From Tribonema minus (lineage: Eukaryota > Sar > Xanthophyceae > Tribonematales > Tribonemataceae): a stretch of DNA of 64,000 bases. Positions 150-35,677 of this stretch are shown here, in pieces. The stretch is taken from assembly GCA_017506865.1 (NCBI GenBank), contig JAFCMP010000006.1, forward strand, positions 62,001 to 126,000, read 5' to 3'. Under the pieces are notes generated by a model that saw nothing but the letters and a program-made list of their open reading frames with translations, had not been told where the DNA came from and ran no database searches. The position numbers and the translations under genes are program-made. How positions within the stretch are numbered: position 1 is the stretch's first letter; every line of letters begins with the position of its first letter.

Positions 150-3100
150 GCGAGCTCGGAAGATGACAGCGACAGTAGCAGCGAAGGCGATCGAGAAAAG
201 CAAGGAAATCAGCCAGGTACAGCGAACCGCCAGTCTCGTGGCGGCGAGAGAACGGCCAGCAGAGCACGCAGCGGCGCAGGCACGGTAGACGCCGGTGGAC
301 GTCAGACCACCAGCAAGGTATGTATGGCAGCGCATCGAAACTTCAAGTGTAATAATGCACACAGGTGTCAGACCACAAGCAAGGTATGTTTGGCAGCGCA
401 TAGAAACTTCAAGTTCAACCATGCACACCTGCTCAATGATAGGAGGGTGATGAGCGTCGCACATTGCAACCGTGCACCACCCAACCTGTACGTCATGGCA
501 AGGTCCGATCAGCAGTTGACAAGCTTCAACTTAGAGTACGCGAAAGCACCTTTCAGCACCTTTAGCTTAGGGCATCACACGCACATCACCAAGTCATCTC
601 TTACCTCTGCTCGATGACTAGGCTGTTTGTGTGGCTGGTGGACAGGTCATTCCTCAATTGTGCTTTTGCTGATCCACCAGTATCGCTTGGGCAGTGCGCA
701 TAGGGGTTACACTTACAGGTACACAACATGTCGTGGCAGCTAGCTGGGATGGCGCGGCATCACCTACAGGCAGCACAGTTCATTCTGCGCAGGTCACTGA
801 CGAAGCGGATGGGCTTCTTAGCTCGGGTCGTTGACACGGCTTTGAGTGAGACATGGCTGCACGCATTTGACGGGTTCTGTGCATGGACGCTTGAACGCAT
901 GCTGCACCTGCACGGCTGCGCTACCGCGGCAGTCATGAAGTCACACCTGCTGGCCGCCTGCACTGCTGGTGACAATGAGGTAGCCAGCAGTGGCAGCGTG
1001 CTGGTATTGCCGCGCTTGGGCCCGCCAGAACTCACGGACATCGCAGTGCCACTGCGGGCGTCACGGTTGCCGGAGCGACGAGGCGGTCTGGGCATGCCGC
1101 TTTTGGGGCTACTGGCACCAGCCGCATACACGGCCCAGGCATGCACAACACTGCGGCCTGCAATAATTCATGCCACTGTGGCAGCAGGGGCCCTGAGGCT
1201 CGGCACTGACGAACACGGCGCAGTCACCTGGTTCACGCAGCACTCATGCGCAATACGCGAGGACCAGGGACTGCCGCCAATCATCGAGGCCGTGCGACGC
1301 TCTACGCGAGCGCTGACAGCTGATGGCGGCGAAAAATCACGCACAGCTGTGGCCGAGCAGCTCCCAGCATCGTTGCTACGGTGGGCAGCGGATACAACGG
1401 CCGCAGCGTCGACGCTCCCCACTGCGGTGCAAGCGATCTACGCCGCAACTGCCGTCACGGAGACGGGGACCACTGAGCCAGCCCCACACACCCACGGCAT
1501 TGTGCCTGGCGCCGAGGCGGCCGCTGCGGCGGCGACCGTACCTGGCCCTCAAGCCGCTGCCGCGGCTGCCTCTTCCACGCCCGCTAAAACACAAACTAGC
1601 GCGGAAGAAAGCAGCTGCAGCGGCGGGCAGGAGGACGACGACGACGACTGGGAGGCCTATGCTGACGAGATCTGCAGAAAGGTAGTGCCCCGCCGCCGGC
1701 GCGGTCACTTCACGCACGGACTACAAGCCCGCCTTTCAAATGTTCTTCGACGTCAATACGAGGACTGCCTGGTGGAGGACCTAGAGGCTGCCTCGGCTGG
1801 TGCCGTGGGCAAGCCGACGCAGGCTACACTTATTGGTGACTTGCGTGACACCAGCCGCCGCCGCCAACAGGCTAGCGCGCGGGTCCTGGCGCAGCTGCGC
1901 AGCCAGCGTGCGTCCGGGGCAATGGCGTGGATGAGCGCGCCACCCGCTGCCAATGACCGCCCGGGTGCGGCGCCCATGTCCAGTATGGCAGCAGCCACGA
2001 TGATTATGGTTGCGATCTTTATAGACGGGTGGGGCATACAGGGCGAGGTGTGCCCATGGCGGTGCAGTGACGTGAGCCCCACCTCCACGCATGCGATCAG
2101 CTGCCCCAGCCAGCACATACGGGGGCACAACGCGACACACACTGCCCAAAAGCGGTGCCTACAGCGCATCTTGAGACAGCACCATGTCTCTATTGTCCGC
2201 AATGAGGACGCTAGCGTCTTCAAGGTACCGGGGTATCGGGCGGACACAGTCATTGACCCAGGGTGTCTGCACTTTAGCAGTGCATACCGTAACAAGGGAA
2301 TAGTGCTAGACACAAGTGTGCGCGCGCCCACAGCGAGCTCGTACCTGACAGGCAAAACAAATGCCTCGAACACGGACGGCTATGCTGCTGGGGTGGGGGA
2401 GGACGCGAAGGTCAAGCACCACACCGGCACCTTGACGTCATCTTGGGCTTTTGTGCCATTCGTGCAGGAGTCGTACGGACGGCTGGGCAAGCAGACAAGC
2501 CTTTTTGTTAAGGAGTTGGCAATGCACTCAGCACTGTGCTCAGGGGGGGGGAAGGCAGATGTGTTACGCAAGGCCGGGTTAGCTAAGCGTCAGATCCTCA
2601 TTGAGCTGAGCATATCGCTGGCGCGGGAGTTGGCGGAGCGCGTCATGGCATACACACGTGGAGCGCGAATGCTGGGCTGTGTTGCGGCGCCGGTATCCAA
2701 ACTCCTAGGGCACAGCGCAGACTAGGCTGCTGCGTTGACGCAAGCTTTTCGATTGCATAGGCAACCCGGCCTCCCTTGGGCCTTTATAAATACAAGTCCA
2801 TACGTACACAACATGAGAACCACAGAGCTTGATTCTGTGCGAGATAAGAACGCTTCTCATGCTGGTTTGTTGACCGCAATCTCAACAAGAATGTGCAGCA
2901 CGGCGCTCGGCACGGGCGGAGCCACCAGTCTTGAAATACCCAAGTCATCGAGGACCAAAGTTGATTTCGTGAACTCAGTGACAGTACTTTTGAGGCTGGT
3001 GCTGGTCATTGAGCTGTGGTGATGCACATGTACTACATGTAGTGATGAGCACTGCTAACTCCACACATTGGATCATTCAAGTTCATGAATTCACTTATTC

Positions 3101-3565
3101 TGACAGGTTGATGGTTTGAACGTCGTGTGTGCATGTGTGCAGGATGGACCGCGCAAGAGCAGCACCACGCATGACGATACCGCCAGCAGCGGCAGCGGCG
3201 ACAGCGACGGCAGCAGCAGCGATTCAGAATCCCGCAGCACCGGTGGCTCTCAATCGAGCAGCAATAGCGGCAGCAGCAGCGGCGGCAGGAGCGGAAGCGG
3301 CAGCAGCAGCAGCAGCAGCGGCAGCAGCAGCAGGGGTGACCGCGCAACATCCGGCTCTGCCACCGGAACGCGATCAAAGAGCGGCTCCGCTCGCTCCGAT
3401 AGCCGCAGCGAGCAGGCTGGCAGTGGCCGTGAAGCGCACAAGGGGACGCCACTGCCGGGTCTGGCGCTAAATGCTTCAAGTTGGTTTGCGAAGATTAAGG
3501 GGGCGGCGGGCGGGGCGGCGGTAAAGAAGCAGCGGCGGGGCAGCAGCAAGGGGGGCAAGGGGTAG
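150..3565 (+). CDS. Ser/Gly-rich low-complexity protein, 3' part (two exons)
   Basis: I do not recognise this gene. Exon 150-317 follows a pyrimidine-rich acceptor ending CAG at 149 and ends before GTATGT at 318. It encodes an acidic then basic Ser-rich stretch (SSEDDSDSSSEGD). The last exon, 3143-3565, follows GTGTGCAG, is in the same phase (0), and ends in TAG. It encodes a long Ser/Gly/Arg tract and a basic tail (SSWFAKIKGAAGG, then KKQRRGSSKGGKG). Matching phase and composition are the reasons for joining the exons. The start lies upstream of 150, probably outside the window. The intron carries a 5'-truncated retrotransposon and a 66-bp duplication of the exon edge. A nuclear or RNA-associated disordered protein would fit the composition, but no function can be assigned. 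Confidence 0.5.
298..430 (+). repeat. 66-bp tandem duplication of exon end plus donor
   Basis: The sequence starting GTCAGACCAC at 301 recurs at 367. It covers the end of the exon (…ACCAGCAAG), the GTATGT donor and about 45 bases of intron. The second copy has an AG just before it (ACACAG) and an intact donor after it. It could therefore be read as a 19-base mini-exon or an alternative donor. Confidence 0.75.
719..2815 (+). mobile_element. 5'-truncated non-LTR retrotransposon, family 1 copy 1, with 12-bp target-site duplication
   Basis: The 12-base direct repeats at 719-730 and 2804-2815 (GTACACAACATG) bracket an insert of 731-2803. The insert is nearly identical to the 3' 2.1 kb of the element at 54933-59979 on the other strand. 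Both copies end in the same 3' sequence (…CAAGTCCATAC). A 5' truncation with a target-site duplication is the signature of target-primed reverse transcription. The insertion lies inside the intron of the Ser/Gly-rich gene, in the sense orientation. Very few differences from copy 2 indicate a recent insertion. Confidence 0.93.
728..2725 (+). pseudogene. C-terminal part of family 1 retrotransposon polyprotein (no RT core)
   Basis: This open frame of 665 codons starts at an ATG supplied by the target-site duplication, so it is not a natural start. It matches the last 40% of the family 1 polyprotein. It covers the region after the reverse transcriptase, a Cys/His cluster (CPWRC, then THAISC), and a restriction-like endonuclease candidate (GYRADTVID, then IVLDTSV). 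The reverse transcriptase and N-terminal zinc fingers are absent, so the copy cannot act alone. Its frame is intact to the natural stop and preserves 46 C-terminal residues that copy 2 has lost to a nonsense mutation. Confidence 0.9.
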
Positions 3566-5233: not shown

Positions 5234-8200
5234 ATGCGGCAAAGAGCGCTGCTCCTGCTCATGGCAAGCTGGCTGGAGGGATCTTATGCTCTGAGCGTCG
5301 ATGTCGCAGCTGGAGATAGGTGAGCAAGTCAGAGCACAGAGTGCACAGAGTTGCGCTCTTGTACCTGCTCTTCAGCAAGTTGGCGGTGCTGTGCAAATGC
5401 TGACTTACCTTTTTCTACTCTCACTGATGTTAATCGCAGGCTAGCCCGATGCGGATATTTGTTGTATGATGCAACGCACGGCCCGCCAAACGGCGATTGT
5501 ACTAATTGCCTCTGCACTGCACTGTGGAGCTTACTTGCGGTGTTGCAAGCATTTCATGTTGGCACGCGAGACAATTCGTATTGCTATTGTGTTTCGGCTG
5601 CTGCGCCGTGCGCCTGCAGTCTCGCACTGGCAGCGGTCGACGCGGCCAACAGCGCACCAGCGTGCACTGGCAGTGCTGTAATCTGGCTGCAGTTGTGAGC
5701 AAGCTGATGAAAACGGCTCTTCCCTGTGTGTTGGCGCATTACAGCGAGTGCTTCATGCTGGTGGCGCCTGCAAAGTCCACCGTAGCCGGCAACTTCGAGG
5801 TGCTCAATGAGGATGATTCGCTGGAGCCAGTTAGGTACTTGATGTTGACGCATACTTTATATTTGCAATTCATGTGACACATGCAGCCATTCGCCGAGAC
5901 GCGTGACTTCAAGCAGTAGTGTACAGAGTAGCGCTGACCTGACACGCCAGCGCGCAGATGATGACAAAACATAATGATTGAAACCATTGAACAGGCAAAA
6001 TGGGCGATTATGCATCACCGTCATGCATTCTCATCCAATGTGCACCATGAGAGCCCTGGCAGCGCACTGCATGTCGATGCTAAATCATGTAGCACGAGTT
6101 TGGCCGGGAGATGTTTATTAGGGCTAGGGGCTGTACTCTTATTAATTTGGGCTAGCTGCTGCATTCTCTCGCTTGGCAATCACATGCTGATCGTCACCAC
6201 CAGCTTCCCCAGTGACGACCACCTTCCCCTGCCGCCCTGCTTCTCCCCACCCCAGGGTCGTAGTGAAAGACCTCACTAATCCGAAACTGCCGCCGCGGAA
6301 AGTCTTCAACGCGGAGCCGGAGGGCAAATTTGCAATCGATGTGAAGACCGACAGCGAGATCCAGATGTGCCTGTACAATGGCTTGGACGAAGCGGACGAT
6401 GGCATTTTGCGTACCTTTGGATTTGCGCTCCGGCTGGAGGGGCTCGAGGAGGAAGCGATGGGGGGGGCGGATGCGGACGATGGGGAGGGGGAGATGGACA
6501 AGGTCGAGGTCTGTGGCTGAGCGTTGCTGACACGATTCTATCATCATTGAAATTTGCAATAAGTTCTAATGTTGATCAAGTCAAGAGTGCGCATCAGCCT
6601 ACCTGATTGCTTATGCTACTCGGGCTTGTGCCTGACACAATTGTTCATCTGAGCCAGGTGACACACTTGTTCATCTTAACCAGGCCAAGAGTGCACATCA
6701 ACCTATACGTTGCCTATGCTACTTGAACTTGTGCCTCGCACAACTGTTCATCTTTAATCAAGACAAGAGTGCACATCAGCCTACATGATTGCGTATGCTA
6801 CTTGGGACTTGGGACTGTGGGGGGGACAGGAACGCAAAAGAGCAGAGCAGCTGGACATGGTTAAGGTCAGTGGTTGAGCGTTGCTGACAGCACTGTGCAG
6901 CCAAGACTGGGGCGGGAACGGGCATCAGCTCATGCAATTGCATGGTTCACTTCCGAAGTATATGCATTCTACTGTATATACTTTAAGGTAATACTTGTCT
7001 GTATCTGGGGGGGGGGGGGCGGACGGGCATGAGGGGAGGGGAAAGCTTGTCAAGGCCGAGGCCAGTGGCTGAGCGTTGCTGACAGAGGAATGTTCACTCA
7101 TCAACTCCGGACAAGAGTGGATGCCAGACTACTCAAAAGGCTCTATGCTTGTTGATCTGCCATGCAGGCGATGATTGACGCAAGCGAGGAGCTTGTGAAT
7201 GACCTCTACACCATGGTGGACCACCAGACATATGTAAGCATCCCCTTTTTCACCACCTGGCATGCTTGCTGATTCTGCAATGTGCTGTCAGAGTTGGCCA
7301 AGGGATGTACTGTTGTCATTGTCACGCATGGTGCACCATCGTAATTGCGTTTTTGGCGCTCGCGCTGCGCTGGAAAAGCATCACCATCTGAACTGCATAC
7401 TCGCTGCGCTACAGACTGTGGCTTGACAATCTGCAAATATGTTACCTTCAACAATCACGTCCGTTTGGCTGCTATGAAGCGGCAGACATCTTGCGCACTT
7501 CCATGACCTGGTGTCAGTCACTTAATCAGTAACATGGACCGTGCATTATTTCTGCATGCTCGACCTGATTACGTCTGTTTTTGTTGCATATATGCGGTGT
7601 TCGTTCCTGTCTGCAGATGCGCCAACGAGAGCAGTCGCACCGGGAAAGTGAGTGGTGTGGGCGCCTCTGTCATATGTAACCTGCACAAATTTACATGCCA
7701 AGTGTTTCGGACGAGATCACATCTAGTGGCATTGCGTCTTGCAACAGGATTTTCTGAGATGTTGTGGCGTGCATGTCCATGGTTTCAGGCTGGTTATGTT
7801 AGGGTTCACAGCTTGGGTAAGCGGCATTTTGTTACGGATACTGCGCAGCGTGCTGATGAGTAAGGTAAGCATGCGATGTCATCGGGGGCCTTCAGGTCAA
7901 TGGTTGGTGCAGCAGTTGGTGCAGCAGTTGACATTGGCAGCGGTGGGACTGACAAGCCTGCTGTCTAACTTCGTGCCGAACGCTGCCTACTCTGCCTGCT
8001 CGATGTGTGCAGCAATTGACAGCACCAACCGGCGCCTTCTGCTGTGGACGATCGCGGAGGCCCTGTTGCTAGTGTCCATGGCCATGTGGCAGGTAAACTG
8101 CAAACGCGGCACCTTTGTATTGGCACACCTGCTACTGCAAACCAGGCTATAGTTTGAGGCCATCAGCTCGAAGCCAGCTGAAGGGTCCAACCAGAACCAT

Positions 8201-16800: not shown

Positions 16801-18988
16801 TTGGTGGAAGGCATGCAATTTGACGGCCAACCACACCTTGTCACCTAGAGCTTATGATCTTTTGATTCGTTTCCATACACCTTAAAGAGTGGGGTCATAC
16901 GTACGACCCTACTCAACTTGATCAGACTGGAGCACTGACGCGCGTCGCGCAGCTATGCAGCACTCACTGAGGACGGGTACGCGCTCGCAGTTCAGCACAC
17001 AAACCCAATCTCGCGCGGCCGATCCGTGGGCGTGTCTGGTGTGGTGTGATATACCGACACACGCGAAACAGTGCAGCAAGCTGACACAGCGCCGCACGCT
17101 GCGGAACAAAGGAACATCAGTGGAGCACTGATAAGCGTCGCGTAGCAATGCAGCACTCACTGAGGACGGGCACGCGCTCGCAGTTCAGCCACACAAACCC
17201 AATCTCGCGCGGCCAGTCCGCAGGCGCATCTGCCGTTGTGCCAATCGTCCTGTCGTAGCCAATGTCGGGCTTCTTGTCCTTCAGGCCCGGGCACGCCCAC
17301 GCGGTGGCGTCGGGGTAGGCATGTATCCACTGCTGCGCGTACTTGACGTGCTCGTAGTTGGGGGACACGACGTGCCGCACGGGGCCCAGCTCCGCCAGCG
17401 CTGCACAGGGGGGGGGGGGGGGGGGCGAGGCGGGGGGGGGGGGGCGTGAGTGCGGGGATGAGCCGTGCTGCGGCCGTGTCGGTGTGGGGCATTTGTCCAA
17501 GTGAGTGAGTGATTTAGAGTATGCTTCCTGGTGTTGAACCTGCGGCCTGTGGATCATGACCGTGACGCGCGCGCGCTACACTGTACGAACTGCTCTATGA
17601 GACGTCTCTGCGAGTTGAAATATTCTGGTGTCGCACGCGTAGCTCATAGTGACCCACGTTTGGTGCGCGTGTGATCGCGCGGAGACATTGCGAACAGCAG
17701 GGCAATTGCGCCAGTAGCATCGGTCCATTACATACAGCGCTTTTCAGTTGCTGCTTGTACATGAGGCTCAGCAGAAACTTCAAGTACACGTCACAAAAAA
17801 CAATGCACGCGCTTTGTGCGACTCCATTAGACGAGGATGTCGTGCCCGCTTATGCTTTGCAGAGTGCTTGTTTGCCGCTGCAGTGCATTCCGATCCTCTC
17901 ATTGCCCTTTCTGCATCAGCTATTCAGCCATCTGCTGCGTTGCAGCTCAGAATTCAGCTATGCAGGGCAGAAAGCGACCTGAAGCACAGTCGCAAACTGC
18001 CCATGGGCCTTCTCAAACGCGCAGGTGCTCTGTTGCCTGCATCGTGTATAGAGGCCAGCACTTCAGACTTCAAATTTCACCATTTTGACAACTTCAACTT
18101 CAACTGTGGTCGTACCCCTCACTTTGTTGCAGTGCGGGGTCCAGCTCCACGGGGCTGTGCACCCACAGTGACCCATCCTCCAGCTTGATCACTGTCATCC
18201 TGCCCCCGACATCGATCGTGTTCCAGATAAATGGCCTGCATGGTACAGGGTCATCAACGTAGTAGTAAGAAGTGCAAGTGTGCGAACTGAAGCGTTGAGA
18301 TGGGTGGTGTGGATTGACACGGGGTTCATGGACAGTGCATCCGATCAACCAGAGTGTGCTGCCAAAAGCTCAACTGCCACTGGTACTGCAGCAGCAAAAC
18401 ATGAAGCTGCATTGATGCTGAGTGTATCTGAGGCTCCATGCCATTCTTTCAGATGCTGAGTGCGCAAAAACACAGCAGAGTACTGCCAAGAGGTTGCCGG
18501 CTGGGCAAGCACTGACAAGACTCTTCAAGGCTCTTTTACTGCCATCAACGCCCTGATAGTTACTGCGTCGACCGGGTAAAACGTTATGTACTTCATGTAA
18601 CAGTTGTGGAGCACAGATAAGCCAAGAGCCGAGCTGTCAGTGGCACACTGTGCAAATGGCCTGGCACCCAATAGCTATATGGCTCCACATAGGTACCTCA
18701 CCAATGACGCACAAATTCACCATATTCGCCAAAGCCAGTTTTCAGCGGTCAATTGCAGGCCGCGATACGTGAGCGTTGCACTCACCTCTCGGCTCCCCAG
18801 ACATTGTGCTTGATGGGTGTAAGATCCAGCCCTTTGGGATTGCTCCAGGTTTTGTCACGAGCGTTCCGTCTTGCAGGTGCTGCCTGTTGTGGTGCTGGCG
18901 TCGCTGTCTGCGACATACGCAGCGGCTTCACGGTCCACGCACCACATATGCATGGCAGAAGCCCCACCAGCGCCAGCGTCAGCTGCAT
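13891..18988 (-). CDS. DUF4336 protein with secretory/plastid-style leader, 5 exons, about 290 aa
   Basis: DUF4336 proteins occur in cyanobacteria, plants and algae; their biochemical role is not established. Exons in transcript order: 18988-18786, 18235-18123, 17400-17161, 15303-15197, 14100-13891. Phases agree throughout. The leader MQLTLALVGLLPCICGA is followed by WTVKPLRMS and a Pro/Ala/Arg-rich stretch, as expected of a bipartite plastid signal in algae with complex plastids. Family motifs are GGRMTVIKLEDGSLWVHSP, GPVRHVVSPNYEHVKYAQQW, YPDATAWACPGL, FFSEVVFHHEPSQCLLCTDV, and VVPCHGRVV near the C-terminus. An upstream in-frame ATG at 19021 would add 11 residues. I prefer 18988 because it begins directly at the hydrophobic leader. 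The exon 4 donor, GTATTG, is weak. Confidence 0.9.
16090..17160 (-). repeat. Complex tandem repeats and exon-3-end copy in DUF4336 intron 3
   Basis: The real end of exon 3 and its donor lie around 17154-17240. A copy about 193 bases away, at 16961-17036, repeats the same exon edge with its GTGAGTG donor (CACTCACTGAGGACGGG on the + strand). Further out, a unit containing GAGCACTGACACRCRTCAGG and ACTTGCTGATGG recurs around 16171, 16464 and 16571. A second unit (CAGCGCYGCACGCTG) recurs near 16700 and 17090. The array extends from the exon into the intron. Confidence 0.8.
16815..16875 (+). repeat. Dispersed repeat fragment (also at 34.3 and 35.3 kb)
   Basis: The text ACGGCCAACCACACCTTGTC, followed by ACCTAGAGC and GATCTTTTGATTCGTTT, recurs in the eL21 gene introns at 34305-34422 and 35250-35365. 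There it is longer and begins GTTTGACTCGTGGCC. It lies in introns of unrelated genes, so it is probably a short mobile or formerly mobile repeat. Confidence 0.75.
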
Positions 18989-22000: not shown

Positions 22001-25000
22001 ACATATCAAGGGCTGCGTCGATACCTACAGCATGTAGCAGACAAGGTAGCGGGCGATGTGTGCACTCATGCGTCAATGGTTGCTGGCTGGTAGCGGTGTT
22101 TGTGGTTGAAACATCACGGCGCGAGTGAGTCAAGGCATGTTGCAGCGACTGAGGAGGTGCATTGCAGGCAGATTAAGGGTTAAGTTAGGGCTAAGGCTAG
22201 GGCTAGGGCTAGGGCTACAATTGGCCCTGAGCCTCACGCAAGCGTGGACTCGCACGGCGCGCCGCATGCGCACCGCCAACGCCGCAGTGGATCATATTCA
22301 TGGAAAAATTCACGACAATCTTCACGAACCTTCAAAATATAGCAATGAAAATGAGACACCCCCCCCCCCCCCCCCTCTTCCCCACCTCAGACACATCAAA
22401 ATACTTTTATGAACTCGAGACCCCCCCGCGCCCCCCCCTTTCCCCCGCTTCTCCACCCGCAGGCGTATCGGCGCAAGCAGCTGCGGTCGTGGGCGGCGCG
22501 CGACAAGGGCCTCGCGGCCGCCAGGCTCGCGTCGCTGCCGCTGTACCGGCTGCTGAGCACTGAGGACGACGCTGCGGAGCGCCGCCGCGCGGGGGCGGCG
22601 GTGTCGCGCGTCGTGCGCTCCGTGGCGGGGGCGCTGTCGCCGGACAGCAGGAAGGAGGCGGACAAGGCGGCGCTGCAGGTGCGCTGCGCTTCCAGGGTTA
22701 GGGTTAGGGCTAGGGAGTTTAGGGTTAGGGTTAGCGCCGGACAGCAGGAAGGAGGCGGACTAGGCGGCGCTGCAGGTGCGCTTGTTAGGTTTAGGGTTCG
22801 GGGCAGGGGTAGGATTAGCGCTGGACAGCAGGAAGGAGGCGGACAAGGCGGCGCTGCAGGTGGGCTTTTAGGGTTACAGTTAGCGGTAAGGTTAGGATCA
22901 GGGTTAGAGCTAGGGTCACATTTAGGGTTGTCTGATGCTCAGGTGGCCTTTGAGAGCTGGATTTAGGGCCACGGTTAGGTTAGGGTAAGGGTTAGGATTA
23001 AGGTTAGGATTAGGTTAGGATTAGGGTTAAGGTCAGGTTCAGGGTTATCTGACGCTCACTGCATGGCTGTTGGCGTGGTGAAAGCGCCTGCCACGATTGT
23101 GCCTGGGAACCTGCCGCCAACAGCTTTGCATGCCAGAAGCCAGAAGCGCAGCGCCACGGTGTGCATCCCTGTTGAGCAGTGCTGACGGCACCCCACGGCG
23201 GCATGTAGTGCCGGTGCTGCTGAGCATGGCTGCAGGCAGCACAACCTATGGCATCCCTTGGCAGTGTCGTTGACCACAACAACGAGGTTGTGTCTGCGCA
23301 TTCTCTCTCCCGGCTTCTACCAGCCCCGTTGTTGCAGTATGTACGTCCGCCTCTGCCACCAAAGCTTCAACATGCAAAAGTGTGCAAAGCGTGAATGCTC
23401 TCTTAAGAGGCGTGAAACACATGTATCTCGCCACCGACTTGACACTATGCAGCACCCTCAACTCTGTGACTTCCGCTGCCGTGCCTGTGCTCCCAGGAGG
23501 CGCTTCAACCGCTGTTGAAGTTCGGCGGCGGCGAAGTTGAACCTGGAGAGTCACGCATCGCAGCGTAGATGCTCAACTCTGTGACTTTCACGCCTTGCCT
23601 GCGCTCCCAGGAGGCGCTTCAACCGCTGTTGAAGTTCGGCGGCGGCGAAGTTGAACCCGGAGAGTCACGCATCGCCGCGGTTATGAGGCGCGTAGCGCTG
23701 GCGACTGCCATTGCGGCAGCGGATCCCGATGTCGGCCAGTGGGCTCTGCGTATGGACAACTGTATTGCAGAGGTGATGACGCTGGCGTCGGCGCGCGGCG
23801 AGGTCGCTCAGGTGAGCGTCGTGCGGATTCATTAATTCATCCATTCATCCATGAATTCATTCAATTGTTGATCAAGTAATGATAGAGGTGATGACGCTGG
23901 CGTCGGCGCGCGGCGAGGTCGCTCAGGTGAGCTGCGCTGAGCGCTGTGCTCATTCATTCATCCATTCATTCATCTGATGATTCGCATTCATTCATGTTAT
24001 TGATCAGATCATGGCAAGGTTTTGTCGCTGGCGTCGGTGCGCGGCGCGGTCGTTCAGCTGAGCTGTGCTGAGCGCTGTGCTGATTCATTCATTGACTCGT
24101 TCATTCATTCGTTCATTGTTGATCAAGTAATGATTGAGGTGGTGACGCTGGCAACAGTGCGCGGCGAGGTCGCTCAGGTGAGAATTGGTATAGGGTGTGC
24201 TCATCTGTACCTATAAGCTTGCTCATAAATTTAATTCATATCCATGAACAGGAAACACAACAGAAGCGGTGTGTGCCGCGGCGCCCTGTGACACCAACCT
24301 TGGATGGGGGCCCGTTCTCAACTCGGTCATCAGCTTTGCGCTCATGGACAGTCCGAGCGCTGCTGCAAGCGACAGTTACACTAATTGTAACCTTCCGTGA
24401 TGATGATTCCCTTGCACCGTGATCTCACTGTATACTTGTGCACACCCCATCTTCTTAACAGGAAATTGCGGCAGAAGCGATATGTGCGGCAGCATCTTTC
24501 GACGCGGGCCGCCCCCTCCTAGGCCCCGTTCTCGAATCAGGCCTCGTATTCGCGCTCATGGACAGCCAGAGCGCTGCTGCGCGGAGCGCTGCTGCGAGCG
24601 GTTACGCCAAGCTCGGCATGGTCAGCCAGGCCCTCAAGGGCGACAGCAACGACATCACCAAGCTGCTGAATGTGTCGCTGGATCTGATTGGCGCGGACGT
24701 GCCGCCTACGGAGAAGGAGCGCGCCGTGGAGGTGCTGACGTTCCTCGTCACCAAGACCAAGGTCAAGGAGGAACTTGGTGAGAGTCGGGGTCAGAGTCAG
24801 AGAGGTTGACTGAGCGTTGCGGTTAGGGGTAACGAGGATCAGAGGGCATGGTCACGGTGATGGATAAGTGTGGTTGGGATCAGATTAGGGTTAGGGGCAG
24901 GGCAGTGCAAGTGTTGTCGTTCCTCATTACCAAGCCCCCCAAGGTCAAGGAAGAACTTGGTGAGTATTACAGTTGAGGTCACAAGCAGGGTCAGGGTTAG

Positions 25001-28000
25001 GATTAGGGCTGGGGGTAAGATTGATTCTAGGGCGGTGGAGGTGCTGACGTTCCTCGTCACCAAGACCAAGGTCAAGGAGGAGCTCGGTGAGGATTGGTAG
25101 TAGGTTTAGGGTTAGCGTTTTGTACCAAAGTTGCTTCCAACAACTAAAGATCCTAACAACTGAAGTACCAGGAGTGTTCCATGTTTCTACAGGCTTCGGG
25201 CGGCAGAGATGCTGACGTTCCTCGTCACCAAGACCAAGATCAAGAAGGAGCTTGGTGAGAATTGGGGGTAGGTAGGGTTAGGGCTAGGGTTGGGAACAAG
25301 GGCGGCAGAGGTGCTGACGTTCCTCATCACCAAGACCAAGGTCAAGTTGGAGCTAGGTTAGGATCAGATTGAGGACTAGGGTTAGGGTTAGGGTAAGGGT
25401 CGGTGTAAGGGCGGTAAAGGTGCGCATGTTTCTCGGTGAGAGCAGGGGCAAAGCAGGGAGGGGCTAACGCTCCTTGTTACCAAGACCAAGACCAAGGACG
25501 AGCTAGGTGATGCTCATGTGCGTCAGTGAGAGATAGGGTTGACATAACCCTAACCCTAACCCTAAAGGCGGGAAGGACCTCACATTCCTTGTTACCAAGA
25601 CCAAGGCCAACCCTAACCTTAACCCTAACCGTGAGCTAGGTGAGCGGTTGGGTGAGGCCACGTAGTGTTTGGCGATAATGTTAGGGTTAGGGCGGTGGAG
25701 GTGCTTACTTGCCTTGTCACGAAGGTCAATGCCAAGGAGGAGCTGGTGAGGCTGAGTTTGAAGCTACGGCTACGTCAGGGTTAGCATATACCATCTCAGG
25801 CAACGATCAGGGCTCAAAATTGCAAATGCCGACCTTCTCCCCCCGTGCAGCATTGCAATGTTCCAAACACGCGTACATCTGTGTGTTTGTCACATTCAAT
25901 ACGGGCCAGGCACCCCACATTGACACGTGCCCAAGCTCTGAACACTCTGCGAAGAACGTACCCAGGCATACTGAGTGCGCCCTTGACACGACCCCCCCCC
26001 CCCCTCCCCCTTTGACATGAGCTCCCCCCCCCCCCAAACCCCCAACACTCCATCGCCGCGCGCAGCATTCGGCAGCGCGCGCTGCAAGGCCAGCCTGGAG
26101 CGTCTGTGCAAAGCCGCCAAGGCCGTCAATGGGCGCAGGCCCATGAGCCCCCTGCCCCCCCTCCCCCCCCCCCCTTAGTGCGCCCTTGACATAGCCCCCC
26201 TCCCCCCCCCCCCCCTCAATCCATCGCCGCGCGCAGCATTCGGCAGCGCGCGCTGCAAGGCCAGCCTGGAGCGCCTGTGCGAAGCGGCCAGGGCCATAAA
26301 CGGCCGCAGCCCCATGGCCTACGGCCTCGCGTCCATCTTTGCGACGCTCGCCGTGAGCCGCGACGAGCTCAAGGCGGAGGCGCTGCGCGACAAGGAAATT
26401 TCCGTGGAGCAGTACGAGCAGCTGCAGAAGGTGAGCTTGGTTGCTGAGCGCTGTGACAGGCAAGGCAGCCCAACCCTAAGTAGCTGCGGGGGGGGGGGGG
26501 GGGGGGGTGAAGGCTGAGGCGCTGCGCGACAAGGAGATCTCCGTGGAGCAGTACGAGCAGCTGCAGAAGGTGAGCTGCTGCTGAGCGCTGCTGCAGCGGA
26601 GCTTTTTTGCCTGAGCGCTGTGACGCAGAGGCGCTGTGCGATGAGGAGATCTTCGTGGCGCCGTACGAGCAGCTGCAGAAGGTGAGCTGCTGCTGAGCGC
26701 TGCTGCAGCGGAGCTATTCTGCCTGAGCACTGTGCCAGGCAAGGCAGCCCTGATCCCTTGCTTACTGCTCGCCGGATCACGGAGAGTCACGAGCAGCTCC
26801 AGAAGGTGAGCTGCCGAACATGGCTGCAACGGAGCTTTGTTGCTGAGCACTGTGATGAGCAAGGCAGCCCTAAGCATTGCTTACTGCTCGTCATTGCAGC
26901 GCAGCGTGGTGTGGTCATTGCTGAGCGCTGTGACAAGCAAGGCAGCCCCCCAGCCCTAGCTGCAGGGCGGGGGGGGGTCATGCGTGATTTGCCTCGGCGG
27001 AGAGGCAACGGCATGCACTGCAAGGCTGCGGCTCTGACCTTGAACCTAACCCTAACCTCAAGTAGGACAGGACATGACAGGCACAGATGTATGTATGTCA
27101 CCATAGCTGCCTTACCTGCCCGCGGTAAGACAAATATTGTGGCGCTGTCGGCAACGTTGTTGTCTTACCTGTCTTATACGGGCGCCAGCTTTTTCAGGTG
27201 ACTGCGGTGGAGCTCTGTTGCTGAGCGCTGCAACAGGCAAGGCAGCCCTAAAACCCCTTGCTTACCGCTCGTCAGATCGCGGAGAGTCACGGGCAAAGAC
27301 CACAAGGTTGGTTCGCTGATCCTAACACAGATGAATGACCCCATCTATACATCCATGTCCCCACAAACTCACTGCTCCCTCTTCTTCCCTTCGTGCGCTG
27401 CGCCCCTGACGCGTCAGATCGCGTAGAGTCACAGCAGCACCCCACAAACAACCCCCCCTTTCTTTCAAGTCCCTTCGAACTCACTGCCCCCTCTTCCTCT
27501 CGCGCGCCGTGCCCCTGACTCGTCAGATCGCGGAGAGTCACGGGCAGGGCCCCAAGGACGACCGTCTGGACCCAGCACAGATGAACGGCCGCACCCTGCT
27601 AGCACACACTGCCTCTTCCTTCACGCACTTCCTCTGCTCTCACGCTTACGGGTTGTCAAGATTGCGGAGAGTCACAGGCAGGGCCTCAGCGACGACCCCT
27701 CAACATCTGAGTCACCCCCAACTTCCACATCCCCACACACTCACTTCACCCTCTTCCCCTCGCGCGCCGCGCCCCTGTATCGTCAGATCGCGGAGAGTCA
27801 CGGGCAGGGCCCCACGGACGACCCGCTGGACGCGGACACGGCGGAGGCGGCGTGCAGGCGCGCGGCAGCGCTCGTCGCGGCGGGCGGCGTGGCAGCGCTC
27901 CGCACGATCGCGGACGGCGCGAGCGCCACCACGCAGCTCGCCATCGCGCAGTGCTACAGGCGCGTGTGCTGCGAGCCGAGCGCGCGCGGGCGCGTCGTGC

Positions 28001-30687
28001 AGCAGGGCGGCCTGAGCGCGCTCATCAACATGGCGGGGGGGGGTGGGGGAGATGGGGGGGAGGGGGGGGAGAAGGGGGTCGCGGGCGAGGCGCGGCACGC
28101 CCTCGCCAAGACGCTCGTCACGACGAACCCGAACCTGCTGACGGAGGCGCAGCGGCTGGGCTGCGTGGCGCCGCTGGTGGCGCTGGCGCGCGCGCACGGC
28201 GCGACGAACCTGCAGCAGTTCGAGGCGCTGCTCGCGCTGACGAACCTGGCGAGCACTGGCAACGCGGTGCGCGCGCGCGTGGCGTCGGAGCGCGGCGTGG
28301 CAGCACTCAGCTATCTCATGTTCTCGGACCACGAGCTCGTGCGCCGCGCGGCGACGGAGGCCATGGTCAACATGCTGCCGCACCCCGACGCGCTGCAGCA
28401 CCTGCGCTCGAAGGACGGCGCGCGGCTGTGGCTCGCGTTTGCGGGTGAGCGGCGGCATCGAGGGTTAGGGTCAGAGCTACTTAGGATGTTGTAGGTGTCG
28501 GGGGGGGGGTAGAGTAGGGGTTATGATCATGCAGTGGCTTGCCGTATGGTTGGGGCTGAATGAGGGGTTGGGGTGAGTGCGAGACGTGGAGTGATCTGCC
28601 GCCGTACGAGTTGAAATTGAGCAGTCATTGCACGACTGGAGTCAGGGCACGGTTGCAGCAAACTCAGGCGCGCTGTTGAAACCGCAGGCGAAAAACCCAG
28701 GCGGCGGCTCTGGCGGCGCTCTGAGCACTGCCTCTTCACTGTGTCTATCATGGAGACCTGTCCACTTGGCTTCGTAGAGTATCGCACGCGCGCTGCGCGC
28801 AGGCGTTGCCGACAAAGACTGCTGTCGCGGCCCTGAGCATTGCCACTTTTTGCATTTTGCCGGCTTCACGCAGAGCTCCCTGACTTCGGCCGCGCGCCGC
28901 TTGCAGACGCTGCCGACGAGGGGTCCCAGGCGCGTTCGACTTGTGCGGCGGTTGCAAGGGGGTCCTCTCTCAGCGGCTGTGCATGCCATACGCACGCTGC
29001 TCGCAGGACCTCGTGACGGTGCTCTGGCAGCACCTGAGCACTGCACCTGCCCGCTTCCACAATGAAGTTTTATTGCTCAAGTTCATCGCTGAGCATTGCT
29101 GCGTGCGCGCTGTGCTGCCCGCAGGCATCGCGGAGGAGGACCGTGCGACGGCGCTCTGGCAGCACCTGAGCACTGCGGCTTCCCTCGTTCAATGAGCACG
29201 CAGCGACCTTAGCCTCAACCTCATGACTTGCCACACGCGCACTGCCCGCAGGCATCGCGGACGAGGACCGCGCCACAGCGCTGGCGGCGGCGGGCGGCAT
29301 CGCCATGGCGTGCGGCGACGAAGGCGTCGCGGCAGCGCTCGTCGAGGCGGGCGCGCCGCAGACGCTGGCGGAGCTGCTGAGCGCTGGCGACGCGGACATT
29401 GCGCACAGGGCGGCGGTCGCGGCGGCGACGCTGCTGGCGCACGGGGGAGAGACCGCGGACGCGATGCGGGGGTGCAAAGGTGCGATTAGGGTGTGTTTAT
29501 CTCAGCGACAAAACTGTATAGTTGAAGTTGGAGTTTATGGTACAGTTGAAGTTCAGTCAGGGCGGTAGATTCGGACGGCGGAGCTGCTGAGCGCTGGCGA
29601 CGCGGACATTGCGCACAGGGCGACAGTCGCGGCGGCGACGCTGCTGGCGCATGGGGGCGAGACTGCGGACGCGATGCGCGGGTGCAAAGGTGCGATGATT
29701 GAAGTTTGATGGGGGTGCTTGTAGAGGGGGGTCACCAGGGGGGGGGGGCGGGCAGTTGCTAAGTGCAGGCGCAAGGTTTGAGATTAGGATTCTGGGGCTT
29801 CTGCACGCGTGTCAAGTGGATGTTGAAGTTTCATGATTGCCGACCAGATGGCGCAATGCGATGCGCAGGTGCGAGGTGCAATGCTCGGCTCATGCACACG
29901 TGAAGCAGATATCAAAGGTCCACGAGTGCCTAATGGAGGGCGTGTGAAGTGACGGTGGCAGAGCTGCTGAGCACTGACGGCGCTGCCGCCTGTAAGCAGC
30001 GGCGGCCCTGCGGCGACGCCCCTCATGTACAGTGGCAAAGCGATTTAATGCAGCTCGCAGTTCCGAAGGGTATTGTGTTGAAAGGTGACGGTGAAGTTCA
30101 ACCCTATCTTCATTGCGTTGAAGGAATCGCGTACTCAGGCGGCGACGCCCCGTGCGCCGATGGACCTGCTCGCTGCGCTGGCGATCTGCTGCGTACCTCG
30201 CCTTGAGCCTCGCAACCTCATGCTCCTGAGCACTGCTGCGGCCAACACGCCTCTGTTCATCAGCCATCGCATTGCCAAATTTCTTGACCGTAATCCATCC
30301 TACCTGTCGCCTCATAGCCAAAACTCATCACCGTAAACCATCTCAACTGTCGCCTCAGTGTGCCAAAACTCTTCATCGTAAGCCATCCCAACTGTTGCCT
30401 CATTGCTACCAAAGCTCTTCGCCTTATACCACCCCAACTGTCGCCTCACTTTTGCCAAAGTTCTTCTCCTTAAACCATCCCAACTTTTGCGTCACTGCCA
30501 AGGTTCCTCACCGTAAACCATCCCAAACTTCGCCTCAGACCTCGTGAATCCAACGTTCTGCACTTTACTTCTTCTTGTTTTTGCCCCAGACCTAGTGGAT
30601 GCGCTGAAGGAGGCCGCAAACGCTGCGCCCACGGGCCACCCCGGCGCCGACGCGATACGCGAAGCCGCCGCAGCCATCAAGGGCTGA
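19082..30687 (+). CDS. unc45: UNC-45 family myosin chaperone (TPR + UCS), 9 exons, 1057 aa
   Basis: UNC-45 folds myosin motor domains and recruits Hsp90/Hsp70. Exons: 19082-19288, 20880-21935, 22463-22678, 23611-23811, 24462-24777, 26237-26430, 27787-28444, 29252-29479, 30590-30687. All phases agree. Residues 1 to about 125 hold three TPRs with the carboxylate-clamp pattern (EEAKAAGNAAF, LNNRAMAHWK, KALYKRAQCHARR). The central armadillo region is interrupted by Gly/Ala-rich loops at about residues 230-252, 300-345 and 393-418, making the protein longer than the roughly 930-950 aa of animal homologues. The UCS region carries the conserved FEALLALTNLAS and LMFSDHELVRRAATEAMVNM segments. It ends DAIREAAAAIKG. 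Almost every exon has outward copies of its edges in the adjoining intron, giving many alternative donors and acceptors. These exon choices are the ones that keep a conserved frame. Confidence 0.93.
20439..20520 (+). repeat. Telomere-like repeat in UNC-45 intron 1
   Basis: Degenerate CCCTAA-type units (AACCCGAACCCTACCCTTAC) are followed after about 30 bases by TTAGGG-type units (GGTTAGGGTTAGGGTTAGCC). The two halves face each other. It is interstitial: coding exons lie on both sides. Confidence 0.85.
22165..23047 (+). repeat. TTAGGG/GCTAGGG-type arrays in UNC-45 introns 2 and 3, with exon 3 end copies
   Basis: Arrays of TTAGGG, GCTAGGG and variants occur at 22165-22215, 22693-22740, 22782-22820 and 22867-23047. 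Between them the end of exon 3 (GGACAGCAGGAAGGAGGCGG, then CGGCGCTGCAG) is repeated twice, at about 22738-22780 and 22820-22862. Each copy is followed by a GTGCGC or GTGGGC donor-like sequence. The first copy has a G-to-T change (GACTAG) that puts a stop in the exon frame. Confidence 0.88.
23497..23577 (+). repeat. Upstream decoy copy of UNC-45 exon 4 start
   Basis: This duplicates the acceptor and the first 80 or so bases of exon 4, which begins at 23611, at a spacing of 114 bases. It keeps the polypyrimidine tract and CAG but reaches TAG in frame after RIAA. Using it would truncate the protein. Confidence 0.88.
23880..24185 (+). repeat. Three downstream copies of UNC-45 exon 4 end
   Basis: The real exon end (GTGATGACGCTGGCGTCGGC, then GTCGCTCAG) with its GTGAGC donor is at 23772-23817. 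It is copied at about 23888-23932, 24016-24062 (degenerate, CAGCTGAGC) and 24138-24184. ATTCATTCATCC-type microsatellite separates the copies. The first and last copies retain functional-looking CAG/GTGAG junctions. Confidence 0.88.
24247..24365 (+). repeat. Upstream degenerate copy of UNC-45 exon 5 start
   Basis: AACAGGAAA, then CAGAAGCGGTGTGTGCCGCG, then GCTCATGGACAGTCCGAGCG match the acceptor and first 120 bases of exon 5, which begins at 24462. Several indels break the reading frame. Confidence 0.75.
24882..25750 (+). repeat. At least seven copies of UNC-45 exon 5 end in intron 5, mixed with telomere-like repeats
   Basis: The exon end (GAGGTGCTGACGTTCCTCGT, then CACCAAGACCAAGGTCAAGG, then the GGTGAG donor) ends at 24777. 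Recognisable copies start near 24901, 25030, 25203, 25306, 25465, 25570 and 25691. A further trace is near 25412. Several retain a GGTGAG-type donor. TTAGGG-type runs lie between many of them (24882, 24985, 25100, 25270, 25377, 25680), and CCCTAA-type runs lie at 25545 and 25610. This is the densest case of exon-edge copying in the window. Confidence 0.92.
26050..26150 (+). repeat. Upstream copy of UNC-45 exon 6 start
   Basis: CCATCGCCGCGCGCAGCATT and the next 80 bases repeat the acceptor and start of exon 6 (26237) at a spacing of about 175 bases. A few substitutions change the peptide, and C-rich tracts flank both copies. The frame stays open for the copied part. Confidence 0.88.
26512..26815 (+). 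repeat. Three downstream copies of UNC-45 exon 6 end
   Basis: The exon end (GTGGAGCAGTACGAGCAGCT, then GCAGAAG) and GTGAGC donor at 26405-26436 recur with donors at about 26571, 26682 and 26806. The first copy includes GCGCTGCGCGACAAGGAGAT. All three keep AGAAGGTGAGC. GCTGAGCGCTG motifs follow the first two. Confidence 0.9.
27268..27710 (+). repeat. Four upstream copies of UNC-45 exon 7 start
   Basis: The acceptor and first bases of exon 7 (CGTCAG, then ATCGCGGAGAGTCACGGGCA) occur at about 27274, 27414, 27522 and 27656, before the real one at 27787. Spacing is 108-140 bases. The copies carry small changes, for example GCGTAG in the second, which creates a stop. The copy at 27522 extends into GACGACCGTCTGGACCC. 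The real acceptor is the last and the only one joined to a long open frame. Confidence 0.93.
28990..29190 (+). repeat. Upstream copies of UNC-45 exon 8 start
   Basis: CTGCCCGCAGGCATCGCGGA, then GAGGACCGTGCGACGGCGCT near 29118-29165 copies the acceptor and start of exon 8 (29252). A more degenerate copy (CGCAGGACCTCGTGACGGTG) lies near 29003. Both are followed by CTGGCAGCACCTGAGCACTG. Confidence 0.85.
29574..29694 (+). repeat. Downstream near-identical copy of UNC-45 exon 8 end
   Basis: About 118 bases repeat the end of exon 8 (from GCGGAGCTGCTGAGCGCTGG to GGGTGCAAAG) with the same GTGCGA donor. Only a few bases differ. It is the best preserved decoy and could act as an alternative exon end if an acceptor upstream were used. 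Confidence 0.92.
30270..30540 (+). repeat. Tandem repeat of about 55-60 bases in UNC-45 intron 8
   Basis: A unit containing CCRTAAACCATCCCAACTGT, CGCCTCA and GCCAAARCTCTTC is repeated about five times with drift. It lies just upstream of the last exon and ends before the T-rich acceptor at 30589. Confidence 0.8.
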
Positions 30688-32822: not shown

Positions 32823-34631
32823 ATGCCTCACTCCTATGGGTACCGCGGGCGCACCCGCCAGATGTTCGCGCGGGGGTTCCGCAAGTCAGGGTACACCCCT
32901 CTGTCCACGTACATGACCAACTACAAACTTGGGGACTACGTGGACATCAAGGTCAACCCCTCCATACACAAGGGCATGCCCTTCAAGCACTACCACGGCC
33001 GCACCGGCGTCATCTACAACGTGACGAAGCGCGCCGTGGGCGTGCGCGTCAACAAGCAGGTGGGACGTCTCTTCAAGTCTCAACTTCAACTGACTGAGAA
33101 TCTGGTGCTGTCAGGCTGCTTTTAACAGTAGTGTATCTGAAGCGTTGCTGGCGTCTGCAGCAGCGATACAAGTGGAACTTGCTTTAATCAATTATGTCAC
33201 CCGCCTGCAACTTGCTCAGTATAGTGCTAGACCAAGCTGCTGCCTGTCTGCAAGGACCTACATGTACTCAGGACGCTGCAGCTTATAGGCGACCCAGTCA
33301 CTGGTTTTTCACCACATCCCTTGCAGTAACATACGCCAAATGCTCATCGAGCAATAATAGAATCAGCTGCAGTGCGTCTAGCCGGCGATGCGTCCGGACT
33401 CCGCTGACGTGGAGCTCAGATGCAGTGCCAGGCAGTGACGGAGCCTGGCGGATTGGAGGAGCGCTTTTCACCACGGCAGTGAAGGGGAGGGGAGGGGGGT
33501 GTGGTGCGGTGCGGGAGAGGAGGAGAACACGAGGGGGGAGAGGGGGCGAGGCGAGGCGAGGCCTTGGGACTGTGGAGCACTGCTGCTGTTAGCAGTGGCC
33601 ATGAATGACTTCGGCGCGGCTTGAAGCTCGTCTCGCCAGTCGGCTGGCGCTCGTGCTGCGGCGGCTGCACGCAGTTGGGCACTGCTGTGCGCACTCCACT
33701 CAACGTCCACGCTCTACGTTGTGAGCTCTGCGTTGTGAGCCGGAGCGCGCGCTGAGCTGTGAGCGCCAGCAACAACAGTCCCCCTTATTCGCGGCGCGCG
33801 GAGTGTTGTGACAGGTGTCGTGGTCGGGCGCGCTTAGCCGTCAGGCTCGCTGCCACAGCGTTGTGGGCAGTAGTACGTCATTGAGCGCTGCGATGTGGGA
33901 GCTGAGCGCTGCTGGACACCTTGAGAGGCAGCGTCGCGGGGCGGCGGATCAGAAATAGGGTTAGGGTTAGGTTTAGGGTTAGGGTTAGGGAGCAAAGACG
34001 CGCTTCGCGTCTCTGCGCTTTGTGCCGTTGTTGCCGCCACAACAGGTCGGCGCCCCACGCACGATGCTGACCATCGCTGCTGCCACTGCCGCTGCTGCTG
34101 CTGCGCTGCGCAGGTGAACGGGCGCATTCTGAAGAAGGCCATCACCGTGCGCGTGGAGCACATCCGCCCTTCCAAGTGCAGGTCAGTGCTCAACAAAGTA
34201 TCTACCTAGGGTTGAGGGTAAGGGTTAGGGCCAGGTGCCACGTGTGATGTCAAAGATGGGGTGGCGGGTGGCGGCAGCAGCGCGCCGCTCGGCCGGCGTT
34301 GACGCAACATTTGACTCGTGGCCAATGACTGCAGCAGCGGCGACCACGGTTATTGGTGGAAGCCACTTGCGGCTAACCATCCCTTGTCACCTAGAGCTCT
34401 TCGATCTTTTGATTCGTTTTTCATTAATGGGCCAGTGATAGCCCAGTGCAGGTCAGTGCGCACCGCACAAACTACCGCAGTTGAAGTCAATGATGGAGTG
34501 GCAGGTGGCAGCAGCGTCGCCGCCGGAACGATGGCAGCCTTGACCCGCCTGCGTTGATGGCATTACGCCTCCACGACGTGCAGAGATGAGTTGAAGCGCC
34601 CGCCGCATGAAGATACGCGGTTGCGCGCGCT

Positions 34632-34669
<38 letters not shown>

Positions 34670-35677
34670 GTCGAGAGTGCTTGGCAGTAGTCATGGGTGG
34701 CCATTTAGCGTCGATACAACGCGTCTCGGTGGCTGTACGACGCTCATGCAGCACATGCGTGTATGCGTGGCGCAAGCGTATCAGCAACAGCTGGGCGCAC
34801 CTCCACCAGCCACACTACCGGACGGTGCTTTCACACCACGCAGGAGTGAGCTCGAACGTCGCTTGCAGGATACCTACATACTGCACATCCTCTGACTGAT
34901 ATATTGTGAACGAGGTACCAGCAAGCCCGTCTCACTTGGTCCTTCCACTATTCACAGGATTGCACGAAAACGGATTGCACGAAAACGTATTTGGTCACAC
35001 AAGTACGGCGTACTTGGGGCGTACTTGGCAATTAGAAATACATCATGAGCAAACTTCAACATCATGAGCAAACTTCAACATGATAACATGCTGCGCAAAG
35101 GGCGTATTTGTGGTGCGTCTGCTCAATTCCGAGCACGCGGTCCACCACGAAAGGGGCACGTGAATTCAGAAATGAACTTCAAAATATGCCTGGAACGCTG
35201 CAAAGCTTGCACACAGAAGTCTTTGGACTATTGTGGACATGATGGCACTGTTTGACTCGTGGCCGATGACTGCAGCAGCGGCGACCACAGTTATTTGTGG
35301 AAGGCACTCACGGCCAACCAGACCTTGTCACCCTGAGCTCTGCAATGTTCTGATGCGTTTCCATAACATGCTGCGCAAAGGGCGTATTTTGGGGTGAGTC
35401 TGCTCGATTCCGAGCGTGCAGTCCACCACGAAAGGGGGGCACTTGAACTCAGAGAATAAACTGCAATATGTGCTTCTGTGCAACTTCAACTATGCGCAGG
35501 GATGAGCTGAAGCGCCGCGTCAAGGAGAACGAGGCGATCAAGGCGGCGGCGCGCGCGGGCGCCGAGCGCCAGAACCTCAAGCGCCAGCCCAAGCAGCCAA
35601 AGGGCGCGTACACGCTGGTCACCAATGGCGCCAAGCCTGAGACCATCCAGGCCCTGCCCTTCGTGGACCTGGTCTAA
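32823..35677 (+). CDS. RPL21: Ribosomal protein eL21 (RPL21), 3 exons, 160 aa
   Basis: This is a cytosolic large-subunit ribosomal protein. Exons are 32823-33059, 34114-34181 and 35500-35677, with consistent phases and a length of 160 residues, exactly the eukaryotic family size. Motifs include [69 protein letters not shown], and the C-terminal QALPFVDLV. The first exon contains the conserved start. Intron 1 carries a TTAGGG array. Intron 2 carries a second TTAGGG array, dispersed repeats, and a short copy of the exon 2 end (GTGCAGGTCAGTGC near 34448). Confidence 0.97.
33955..33992 (+). repeat. Telomere-like array in eL21 intron 1
   Basis: Five to six TTAGGG/TTTAGGG units lie in the intron about 120 bases before exon 2. 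Both the six- and seven-base unit types are present. Confidence 0.9.
34305..35450 (+). repeat. Interleaved repeat pair in eL21 intron 2
   Basis: One unit (GTTTGACTCGTGGCCRATGA, then CTGCAGCAGCGGCGACCAC) occurs at 34305-34422 and 35250-35365, and a fragment lies at 16815-16875. A second unit (ACATGCTGCGCAAAGGGCGT, then CCGAGC and CCACCACGAAAGGG) occurs at 35086-35165 and 35367-35450. The order suggests a segment of about 280 bases was duplicated in tandem. Confidence 0.8.
34632..34674 (+). repeat. Telomere-like array in eL21 intron 2
   Basis: Six to seven TTAGGG units, one of them TTTAGGG, lie in a row. A shorter run lies near 34203-34230, just past the exon 2 donor. Confidence 0.9.

What the first reader, a model, noticed from the sequence alone, without database searches (positions are those of the whole stretch)
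150..35499. General rule: exon edges are copied outward into introns in several unrelated genes
The pattern appears in the Ser/Gly-rich gene (300/367), p24 (6458/6810/7004), DUF4336 (17154/16961), UNC-45 (exons 3 to 8), and more weakly eL21 (34168/34448). Where an exon's donor side is copied, the copies lie downstream. Where its acceptor side is copied, they lie upstream. The real splice site is always the one nearest the exon body. I know of no named intron class with this property. It may be a genome-wide mode of intron expansion, or a buffer of decoy splice sites.
Basis: partly seen in the sequence, partly recalled or inferred. Interest (0 to 1): 0.9.

Follow-up and report, generated by a model that had tools for sequence, protein, structure and literature searches.

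The report
Exon edges copied outward into introns
In this green-alga-like genome many introns carry tandem, decaying copies of the ends of their neighbouring exons, which suggests that introns can grow by repeated duplication at the exon-intron border, with the living exon refreshing its copies.

Summary
In 55 introns modelled in 15 genes or loci (window plus chaperonin and kinesin genes elsewhere), 33 of 110 exon edges have a same-strand match in their own intron. Exon-intron pairs from different genes give 12 of 5488, and the reverse strand 0 of 110. Donor-side copies lie downstream and acceptor-side copies upstream. eL21 is not supported at this threshold.

The repeats are direct and local, with a main spacing of 100-199 bp. 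The one intron tested is not a dispersed element. Repeat clusters touch splice junctions more than uniform placement predicts (32 of 46; 13 expected, or about 21 allowing for slower decay of exon copies). Copies show only weak coding constraint and no extra retention of splice sites, so a decoy role is not supported. 'The real site is nearest the exon' follows from protein continuity and selection.

The surprise is that exonic parts of copies look much younger than their intronic flanks, and nearer copies tend to resemble the exon more. I favour recurrent duplication at exon edges, with the exon as a conserved master that re-copies or converts its copies. That mechanism is inferred; no transcripts or relatives were available.

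The parts
301..428 (+). Ser/Gly-rich gene: donor region 301-362 and its copy 367-428 (period 66)
6256..6508 (+). p24 exon whose donor edge (6508) is copied downstream
   Evidence: EMP24_GP25L E=4.8e-32 for the spliced protein; edge score 26
6816..7084 (+). two copies of the p24 donor edge, junction equivalents 6865 and 7060
16921..17240 (-). DUF4336 gene: donor edge of the exon predicted at 17161-17400 and its copy 16921-17046 in the downstream (minus-strand) intron
   Evidence: 86%, period 195; this exon itself had no Pfam match; two neighbouring exons match DUF4336 weakly (E 2e-5 and 0.0017, below the Pfam cut-off)
22463..22678 (+). UNC-45 exon 3, donor edge copied
   Evidence: edge score 39
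22735..22859 (+). two copies of the exon 3 donor edge (junction equivalents 22775, 22859) separated by TTAGGG-like DNA
23497..23565 (+). copy of the exon 4 acceptor edge (69 exonic nt, 97% to the exon)
23611..23811 (+). UNC-45 exon 4, copied at both edges
   Evidence: acceptor score 58, donor score 44
23877..24177 (+). three copies of the exon 4 donor edge (junction equivalents 23926, 24057, 24177)
24462..24777 (+). UNC-45 exon 5, donor edge copied
   Evidence: edge score 49
24897..25746 (+). six copies of the exon 5 donor edge found (junction equivalents 24959, 25086, 25254, 25356, 25506, 25746)
   Evidence: the 1459-bp intron matched nothing else in the genome search apart from a TTAGGG-like piece
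26066..26163 (+). copy of the exon 6 acceptor edge (98 exonic nt)
26237..26430 (+). UNC-45 exon 6, copied at both edges
   Evidence: acceptor score 51, donor score 54
26510..26805 (+). three copies of the exon 6 donor edge (junction equivalents 26569, 26681, 26805)
27276..27698 (+). four copies of the exon 7 acceptor edge (starting near 27276, 27418, 27527, 27661)
   Evidence: a fifth, weaker match lies 1011 nt upstream
27787..28444 (+). UNC-45 exon 7, acceptor edge copied
   Evidence: edge score 40
29125..29155 (+). copy of the exon 8 acceptor edge
29252..29479 (+). UNC-45 exon 8, copied at both edges
   Evidence: acceptor score 24, donor score 52
29577..29689 (+). copy of the exon 8 donor edge: 113 exonic nt at 95%, homology ending 7 nt past the junction

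Best explanation
Shown: short direct repeats (main spacing 100-199 bp) recur at exon-intron borders, and exon-edge fragments with a splice site lie in the intron, often as arrays, in introns that are longer than average. Also shown: copies closer to the exon tend to resemble it more; copies resemble the exon more than each other; their exonic parts look much younger than their intronic flanks. Inferred: a duplication that spans a junction leaves the protein intact only if the inner splice site is used, so the extra copy ends up in the intron, and repetition at the same border lengthens it. The exon edge, held constant by selection, acts as a master sequence. Unequal exchange or gene conversion between exon and copies keeps spawning or refreshing the exonic part. 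The flank, with no constrained partner, drifts out of homology and stops being converted. The copies themselves are a neutral by-product. The initiating lesion is unknown; repair of staggered breaks or replication slippage are candidates.
For: Same-strand, own-intron matches at 33 of 110 edges against 12 of 5488 shuffled pairs; outward direction. Direct 14-mer pairs 4798 vs 33 inverted, 2241 of the direct ones at spacing 100-199 and a second mode near 300. 32 of 46 repeat components straddle a junction against 13.2+-2.6 expected; P=0.0013 against a simulation that includes slower decay of exon copies. In 19 arrays with two or more copies the nearer copy is more exon-like in 61 of 82 pairs (0 of 5000 permutations as high; the nearest is the best or joint best in 12 of 19); exonic identity copy-exon 0.866, copy-copy 0.803. 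For 21 copies with 0-6% exonic divergence the flank score is 0.35 against 0.85 expected at equal age (0.70 even with as many indels as substitutions); the correlation over 73 copies is -0.22 against -0.94. Flanks score above the null 95% quantile in 58 of 76, so most arrays arose from units that included intron. Differences in copies are clustered and rarer near the junction, as recombination tracts would give. All 5 positions where the exon alone differs are third codon positions, while copy-only differences fall 31/18/37.
Against: Conversion is inferred from the contrast between exonic and intronic parts, not seen in alleles or relatives. Copies were picked by exonic similarity, which could exaggerate that contrast, and flanks may mutate faster than modelled; for copies over 20% diverged the flank scores slightly higher than predicted (0.27 vs 0.16-0.21). 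In 19 of 81 copies homology ends within 10 nt of the junction, which fits exon-only copying as well. Intron-interior segments also match nearby DNA (roughly 0.1-0.3 in each direction), so edges are not the only repeated DNA. Junction enrichment after the detectability correction is modest (46% expected, 70% seen) and depends on the null. Copy-only differences are unevenly spread over codon positions (P=0.037) with a synonymous excess (36 of 86; P=0.035 after allowing for mutation spectrum), so weak constraint is not excluded. Seven of 15 genes or loci show no edge at score >=20, which the model does not explain.
Confidence: 0.55

Rival explanations
1. Ordinary tandem duplication at uniform positions in genes. 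Duplications inside exons are purged, exon-containing copies stay recognisable longer because the exon half does not change, and everything decays neutrally.
For: Direct, local units; exonic 0.87 vs intronic 0.78 identity over all copies is roughly one against two mutating lineages; 14 of 46 components do not straddle a junction; intron interiors are repetitive too.
Against: Junctions are hit more than uniform placement predicts. Exonic and intronic ages are decoupled, most of all in the youngest-looking copies. Most copy differences are unshared (136 vs 33 positions).
Confidence: 0.25
2. Copies are kept by selection as decoy splice sites or as exonic splicing signals.
For: Exonic parts and the first intronic bases of copies are conserved relative to flanks, with a sharp step at the junction.
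Against: Splice dinucleotides are kept in 68 of 81 copies, no more than neighbouring exonic bases predict; copies carry indels and a few stops; 7 of 15 genes or loci have no edge at score >=20.
Confidence: 0.1
3. Copies are used as alternative partial exons.
For: A simple gene finder trained here predicts some copies as strong exons, for example 25041-25086 and 26513-26569 in UNC-45, and far more introns than were modelled.
Against: 16 gap events in 50 copies, 4 of 50 with an in-frame stop; codon-position bias of copy-only changes is only weak; proteins are continuous without them.
Confidence: 0.05
4. A mobile element or introner inserts next to splice sites and duplicates the border.
For: TTAGGG-like and other simple repeats lie between some copies (read).
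Against: The 1459-bp UNC-45 intron with six copies found no relative elsewhere apart from a TTAGGG-like piece (a search that skips simple repeats and very common words); low-complexity flank is not significantly associated with copies (P=0.19); inverted repeats are nearly absent.
Confidence: 0.03

Closest known systems
Small tandem duplications from staggered breaks (CST/Pol alpha-primase fill-in and end joining; PMC8355091, passages seen)
   Same: Direct, local, small, homology-independent duplications; a plausible initiating event
   Different: The passages seen tie it neither to exon edges nor to arrays with refreshed exonic parts; no size comparison was made
Intron gain by tandem genomic duplication of an AGGT-bearing exon segment (recalled; not read)
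   Same: Tandem duplication near splice signals
   Different: There the intron start resembles the downstream exon and a new intron is made; here existing introns appear to grow, and copies carry exon end plus donor, or acceptor plus exon start
Introner elements (Amoebophrya, PMC7789003, passages seen)
   Same: Repeats tied to intron borders
   Different: Introners are repeated families with inverted repeats and 3-5 nt direct repeats at borders; here the one array tested is locus-specific and matches are nearly all direct
Tandem exon duplication / mutually exclusive exons (recalled)
   Same: Exon sequence repeated in a neighbouring intron
   Different: Exon edges (nearest copies: median 59 nt) are copied and copies decay with little coding constraint
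Concerted evolution with a constrained master copy (recalled)
   Same: Copies would track a functional master through conversion
   Different: Here the master would be the edge of a single exon and the copies intronic debris

Membership tests
Introner elements | same element dispersed at many loci | tested here: not met
   one array-bearing intron searched against the own genome: itself, its own exon edges and a TTAGGG-like piece on other contigs; other introns not tested
Introner elements | terminal inverted repeats | tested here: not met
   local inverted matches 0 in the window, 3 in 16 stretches; very short terminal repeats and target-site duplications not tested
Local tandem duplication | same strand, local, with a main spacing class | tested here: met
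   but 19 of 81 copies lose homology within 10 nt of the junction
Local tandem duplication decaying neutrally | all parts of a unit are the same age | tested here: not met
   exonic parts much less diverged than flanks in young-looking copies
Tandem exon duplication | whole exon copied with an open, conserved reading frame | tested here: not met
   edge fragments; 16 gap events in 50 copies; weak codon signal
Gene conversion with a master copy | copies follow lineage changes of their own master | not testable with these tools
   no relative of this genome is held; indirect support only
Decoy splice sites | splice signals kept better than surroundings | tested here: not met
   68 of 81 dinucleotides kept at about 0.91 per-base exonic identity
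Intron gain by tandem duplication | intron start resembles downstream exon start | not tested
   no comparison of this kind was made on its own; two searches asked only where exon-edge matches lie

The most novel reading that the evidence does not exclude
Exon edges are perpetual master sequences. A junction-anchored duplication process with a unit of about 100-200 bp keeps copying them into introns, and recombination with the exon keeps the copies young, so introns lengthen outward from their exons across the genome. This would be a new engine of intron growth in green algae, driven indirectly by purifying selection on exons.
Probability: 0.35. Interest if true: 0.85.

Novelty: new variant of a known kind. 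Interest (0 to 1): 0.64.

Why it matters
[quoted passage not shown] passages seen). A process that builds introns from the edges of their own exons is testable from sequence alone and would give one answer. It would also mislead gene prediction: a simple gene finder trained here takes some copies for exons. And it would show a way in which selection on exons shapes neighbouring non-coding DNA. Six searches touching on such a process (two listed only part of their hits) showed no paper describing it by title and abstract start. Subscription journals are mostly not held.

Tried and rejected
Introner or transposon: rejected for the intron tested. Inverted or hairpin repeats: nearly absent. Simple repeats as driver: flank low complexity 0.046 vs 0.025, P=0.19, despite TTAGGG, ATTC and poly-G between some copies. 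G+C: exon edges with copies are richer (0.680 vs 0.633, P=0.004) and intron length differs more (P=2e-5); cause and effect not separated. Coding or decoy function. Plain neutral decay was my first model and failed. A characteristic exonic length near 59 nt (6 of 31 best copies at 58-60 nt) is post hoc and left open. Organism: not identified. A search for 18S rRNA gave no answer. Haematococcus lacustris (151 Mb), CCCryo 101-99 (122.5 Mb) and Limnomonas (260 Mb) differ in assembly size. Arbitrary stretches: in L043-L046, 7 of 17 repeat components straddle a strongly predicted exon edge, all outward, and 10 do not; the gene finder misses weak exons and no null was computed. It finds 52 of 55 donors and 51 of 55 acceptors, in part its own training data. 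The adaptin family search did not complete twice; HSP70 hits were looked over, not fetched.
Full report
What was checked. The window lies on contig C6 of a 158-Mb, 554-contig genome. The organism was not identified; 'green-alga-like' rests on composition, TTAGGG-like repeats and recall. I modelled 55 introns: 37 in chaperonin (PF00118) and kinesin (PF00225) genes, from exon-by-exon profile matches joined by splice signals and profile continuity, and 18 in the window's UNC-45, p24, eL21 and ThiE genes. One of 38 automatic junctions was dropped and one poor one kept. Of the kinesin genes only two were fetched. Spliced proteins are continuous and match known families, so the inner splice sites are the real ones.

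33 of 110 exon edges score >=20 in their own intron, 12 of 5488 in introns of other genes, 0 of 110 on the reverse strand. Donor edges match downstream (35% vs 4% upstream) and acceptor edges upstream (31-36% vs 4%). The effect is patchy: 8 of 15 genes or loci have at least one such edge. At a stricter cut, 31 of 110 edges qualify: CCT theta (L037) 8 of 12, the kinesin L047 6 of 8, UNC-45 9 of 16, L036 none of 14.

What the copies are. Local matches are direct: 58 to 0 in the window, 144 to 3 in fetched stretches, 4798 to 33 by 14-mers, with 2241 at spacing 100-199 and a second mode near 300. A third search, anchored on the junctions, gave 81 copies at 34 edges. The nearest copy is a median 150 nt away and carries a median 59 nt of exon. 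A few of the 81 are weak or over-extended alignments. In 19 of 81 homology ends within 10 nt of the junction, which is odd for a plain tandem unit. GT is kept in 33 of 40 and AG in 35 of 41 copies. The intron with the longest UNC-45 array matched nothing else in the genome apart from a TTAGGG-like piece.

Are exon edges special? 32 of 46 repeat components, found in 34 of 55 introns, straddle a junction, with 13.2+-2.6 expected from uniform placement. Exon-containing copies decay more slowly and are seen longer; a simulation with that effect expects 46%, against 70% seen (P=0.0013). That simulation gave equal weight to all introns long enough for the drawn unit. Intron interiors are repetitive too. 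So an excess at junctions remains, but it is moderate.

Age structure. In 19 arrays the copy nearer the exon is more exon-like in 61 of 82 comparisons (0 of 5000 permutations as high), and the nearest is best or joint best in 12 of 19. Copies resemble the exon (0.866) more than each other (0.803), and most differences are unshared (136 vs 33 positions). At the splice junction identity drops sharply. For 37 copies with exonic identity >=0.9 it is 0.93-0.97 over the 40 exonic bases next to the junction and 0.91 over the first five intronic bases (null 0.74), then about 0.6-0.7 (null about 0.54). For 21 copies with 0-6% exonic divergence the flank score is 0.35 where equal-age neutral decay predicts 0.85, or 0.70 with as many indels as substitutions. 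43, 32 or 23 of 73 copies fall below the simulated 5% quantile at indel ratios 0.2, 0.5 and 1.0. Flanks nevertheless exceed the null 95% quantile in 58 of 76. The simplest reading is that arrays are old and their exonic parts are refreshed from the exon. Selection of copies by exonic similarity and fast flank mutation are the main caveats.

Function. Over 50 copies the difference rate by codon position is 0.080, 0.054 and 0.127, with 16 gap events and 4 copies with an in-frame stop. In arrays of three or more, positions where one copy alone differs fall 31/18/37 (P=0.037 against even); 36 of 86 are synonymous, against 0.27 expected at random (P=0.003) or 0.31 after correcting for the mutation spectrum (P=0.035). 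All five exon-only changes are at third positions. Splice dinucleotides are kept no better than neighbouring bases. I see no good sign of function, though weak constraint is not excluded.

Consequence. Introns with edge copies are longer (mean 1087 vs 632 nt) and more repeat-filled (45% vs 8%). In two paralogous chaperonin genes the same intron position holds 357 nt without copies (L035) and 2382 nt with four (L041). In the hit tables I also noticed partial profile matches just downstream of full exons in two further kinesin genes (C511:562024-562092 and C246:701357-701488), in the predicted orientation; this was not a systematic count.

Verdict. A real and widespread association of exon-edge copies with intron borders and longer introns. 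Local direct duplication over the junction is well supported as its source. Refreshing by recombination with the exon is the best-fitting inference. The trigger, the gene-to-gene variation and the phylogenetic spread are open.

Noticed in passing
L031, L037, window UNC-45: The exonic part of the best copy ends 58-60 nt from the junction at 6 of 31 edges, at both donors and acceptors; unexplained and post hoc.
   Followed up: partly
window 22700-25750; also 34635-34670: Interstitial TTAGGG-like repeats inside introns, in UNC-45 several times at the seam between exon-edge copies.
   Followed up: partly
L035 2284-2642 and L041 1540-3923: Same intron position in two chaperonin paralogues: 357 nt clean versus 2382 nt with four acceptor-edge copies.
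   Followed up: partly
window 39252-42347 (-), 47276-49519 (+), 55158-60050 (-): Retrotransposon-like open frames: reverse transcriptase at the first and (below the Pfam cut-off) the third, RNase H and integrase at the second.
   Followed up: no
window 8100-8511: Tandem repeat starting 8 nt after a p24 donor but without exon sequence; 88-91% identical.
   Followed up: no
G000:C179:221650-223642 and C90:846742-848762: Two HSP70 loci with identical profile scores for their first matched exon: recent duplicates or alleles that could test copy turnover.
   Followed up: no
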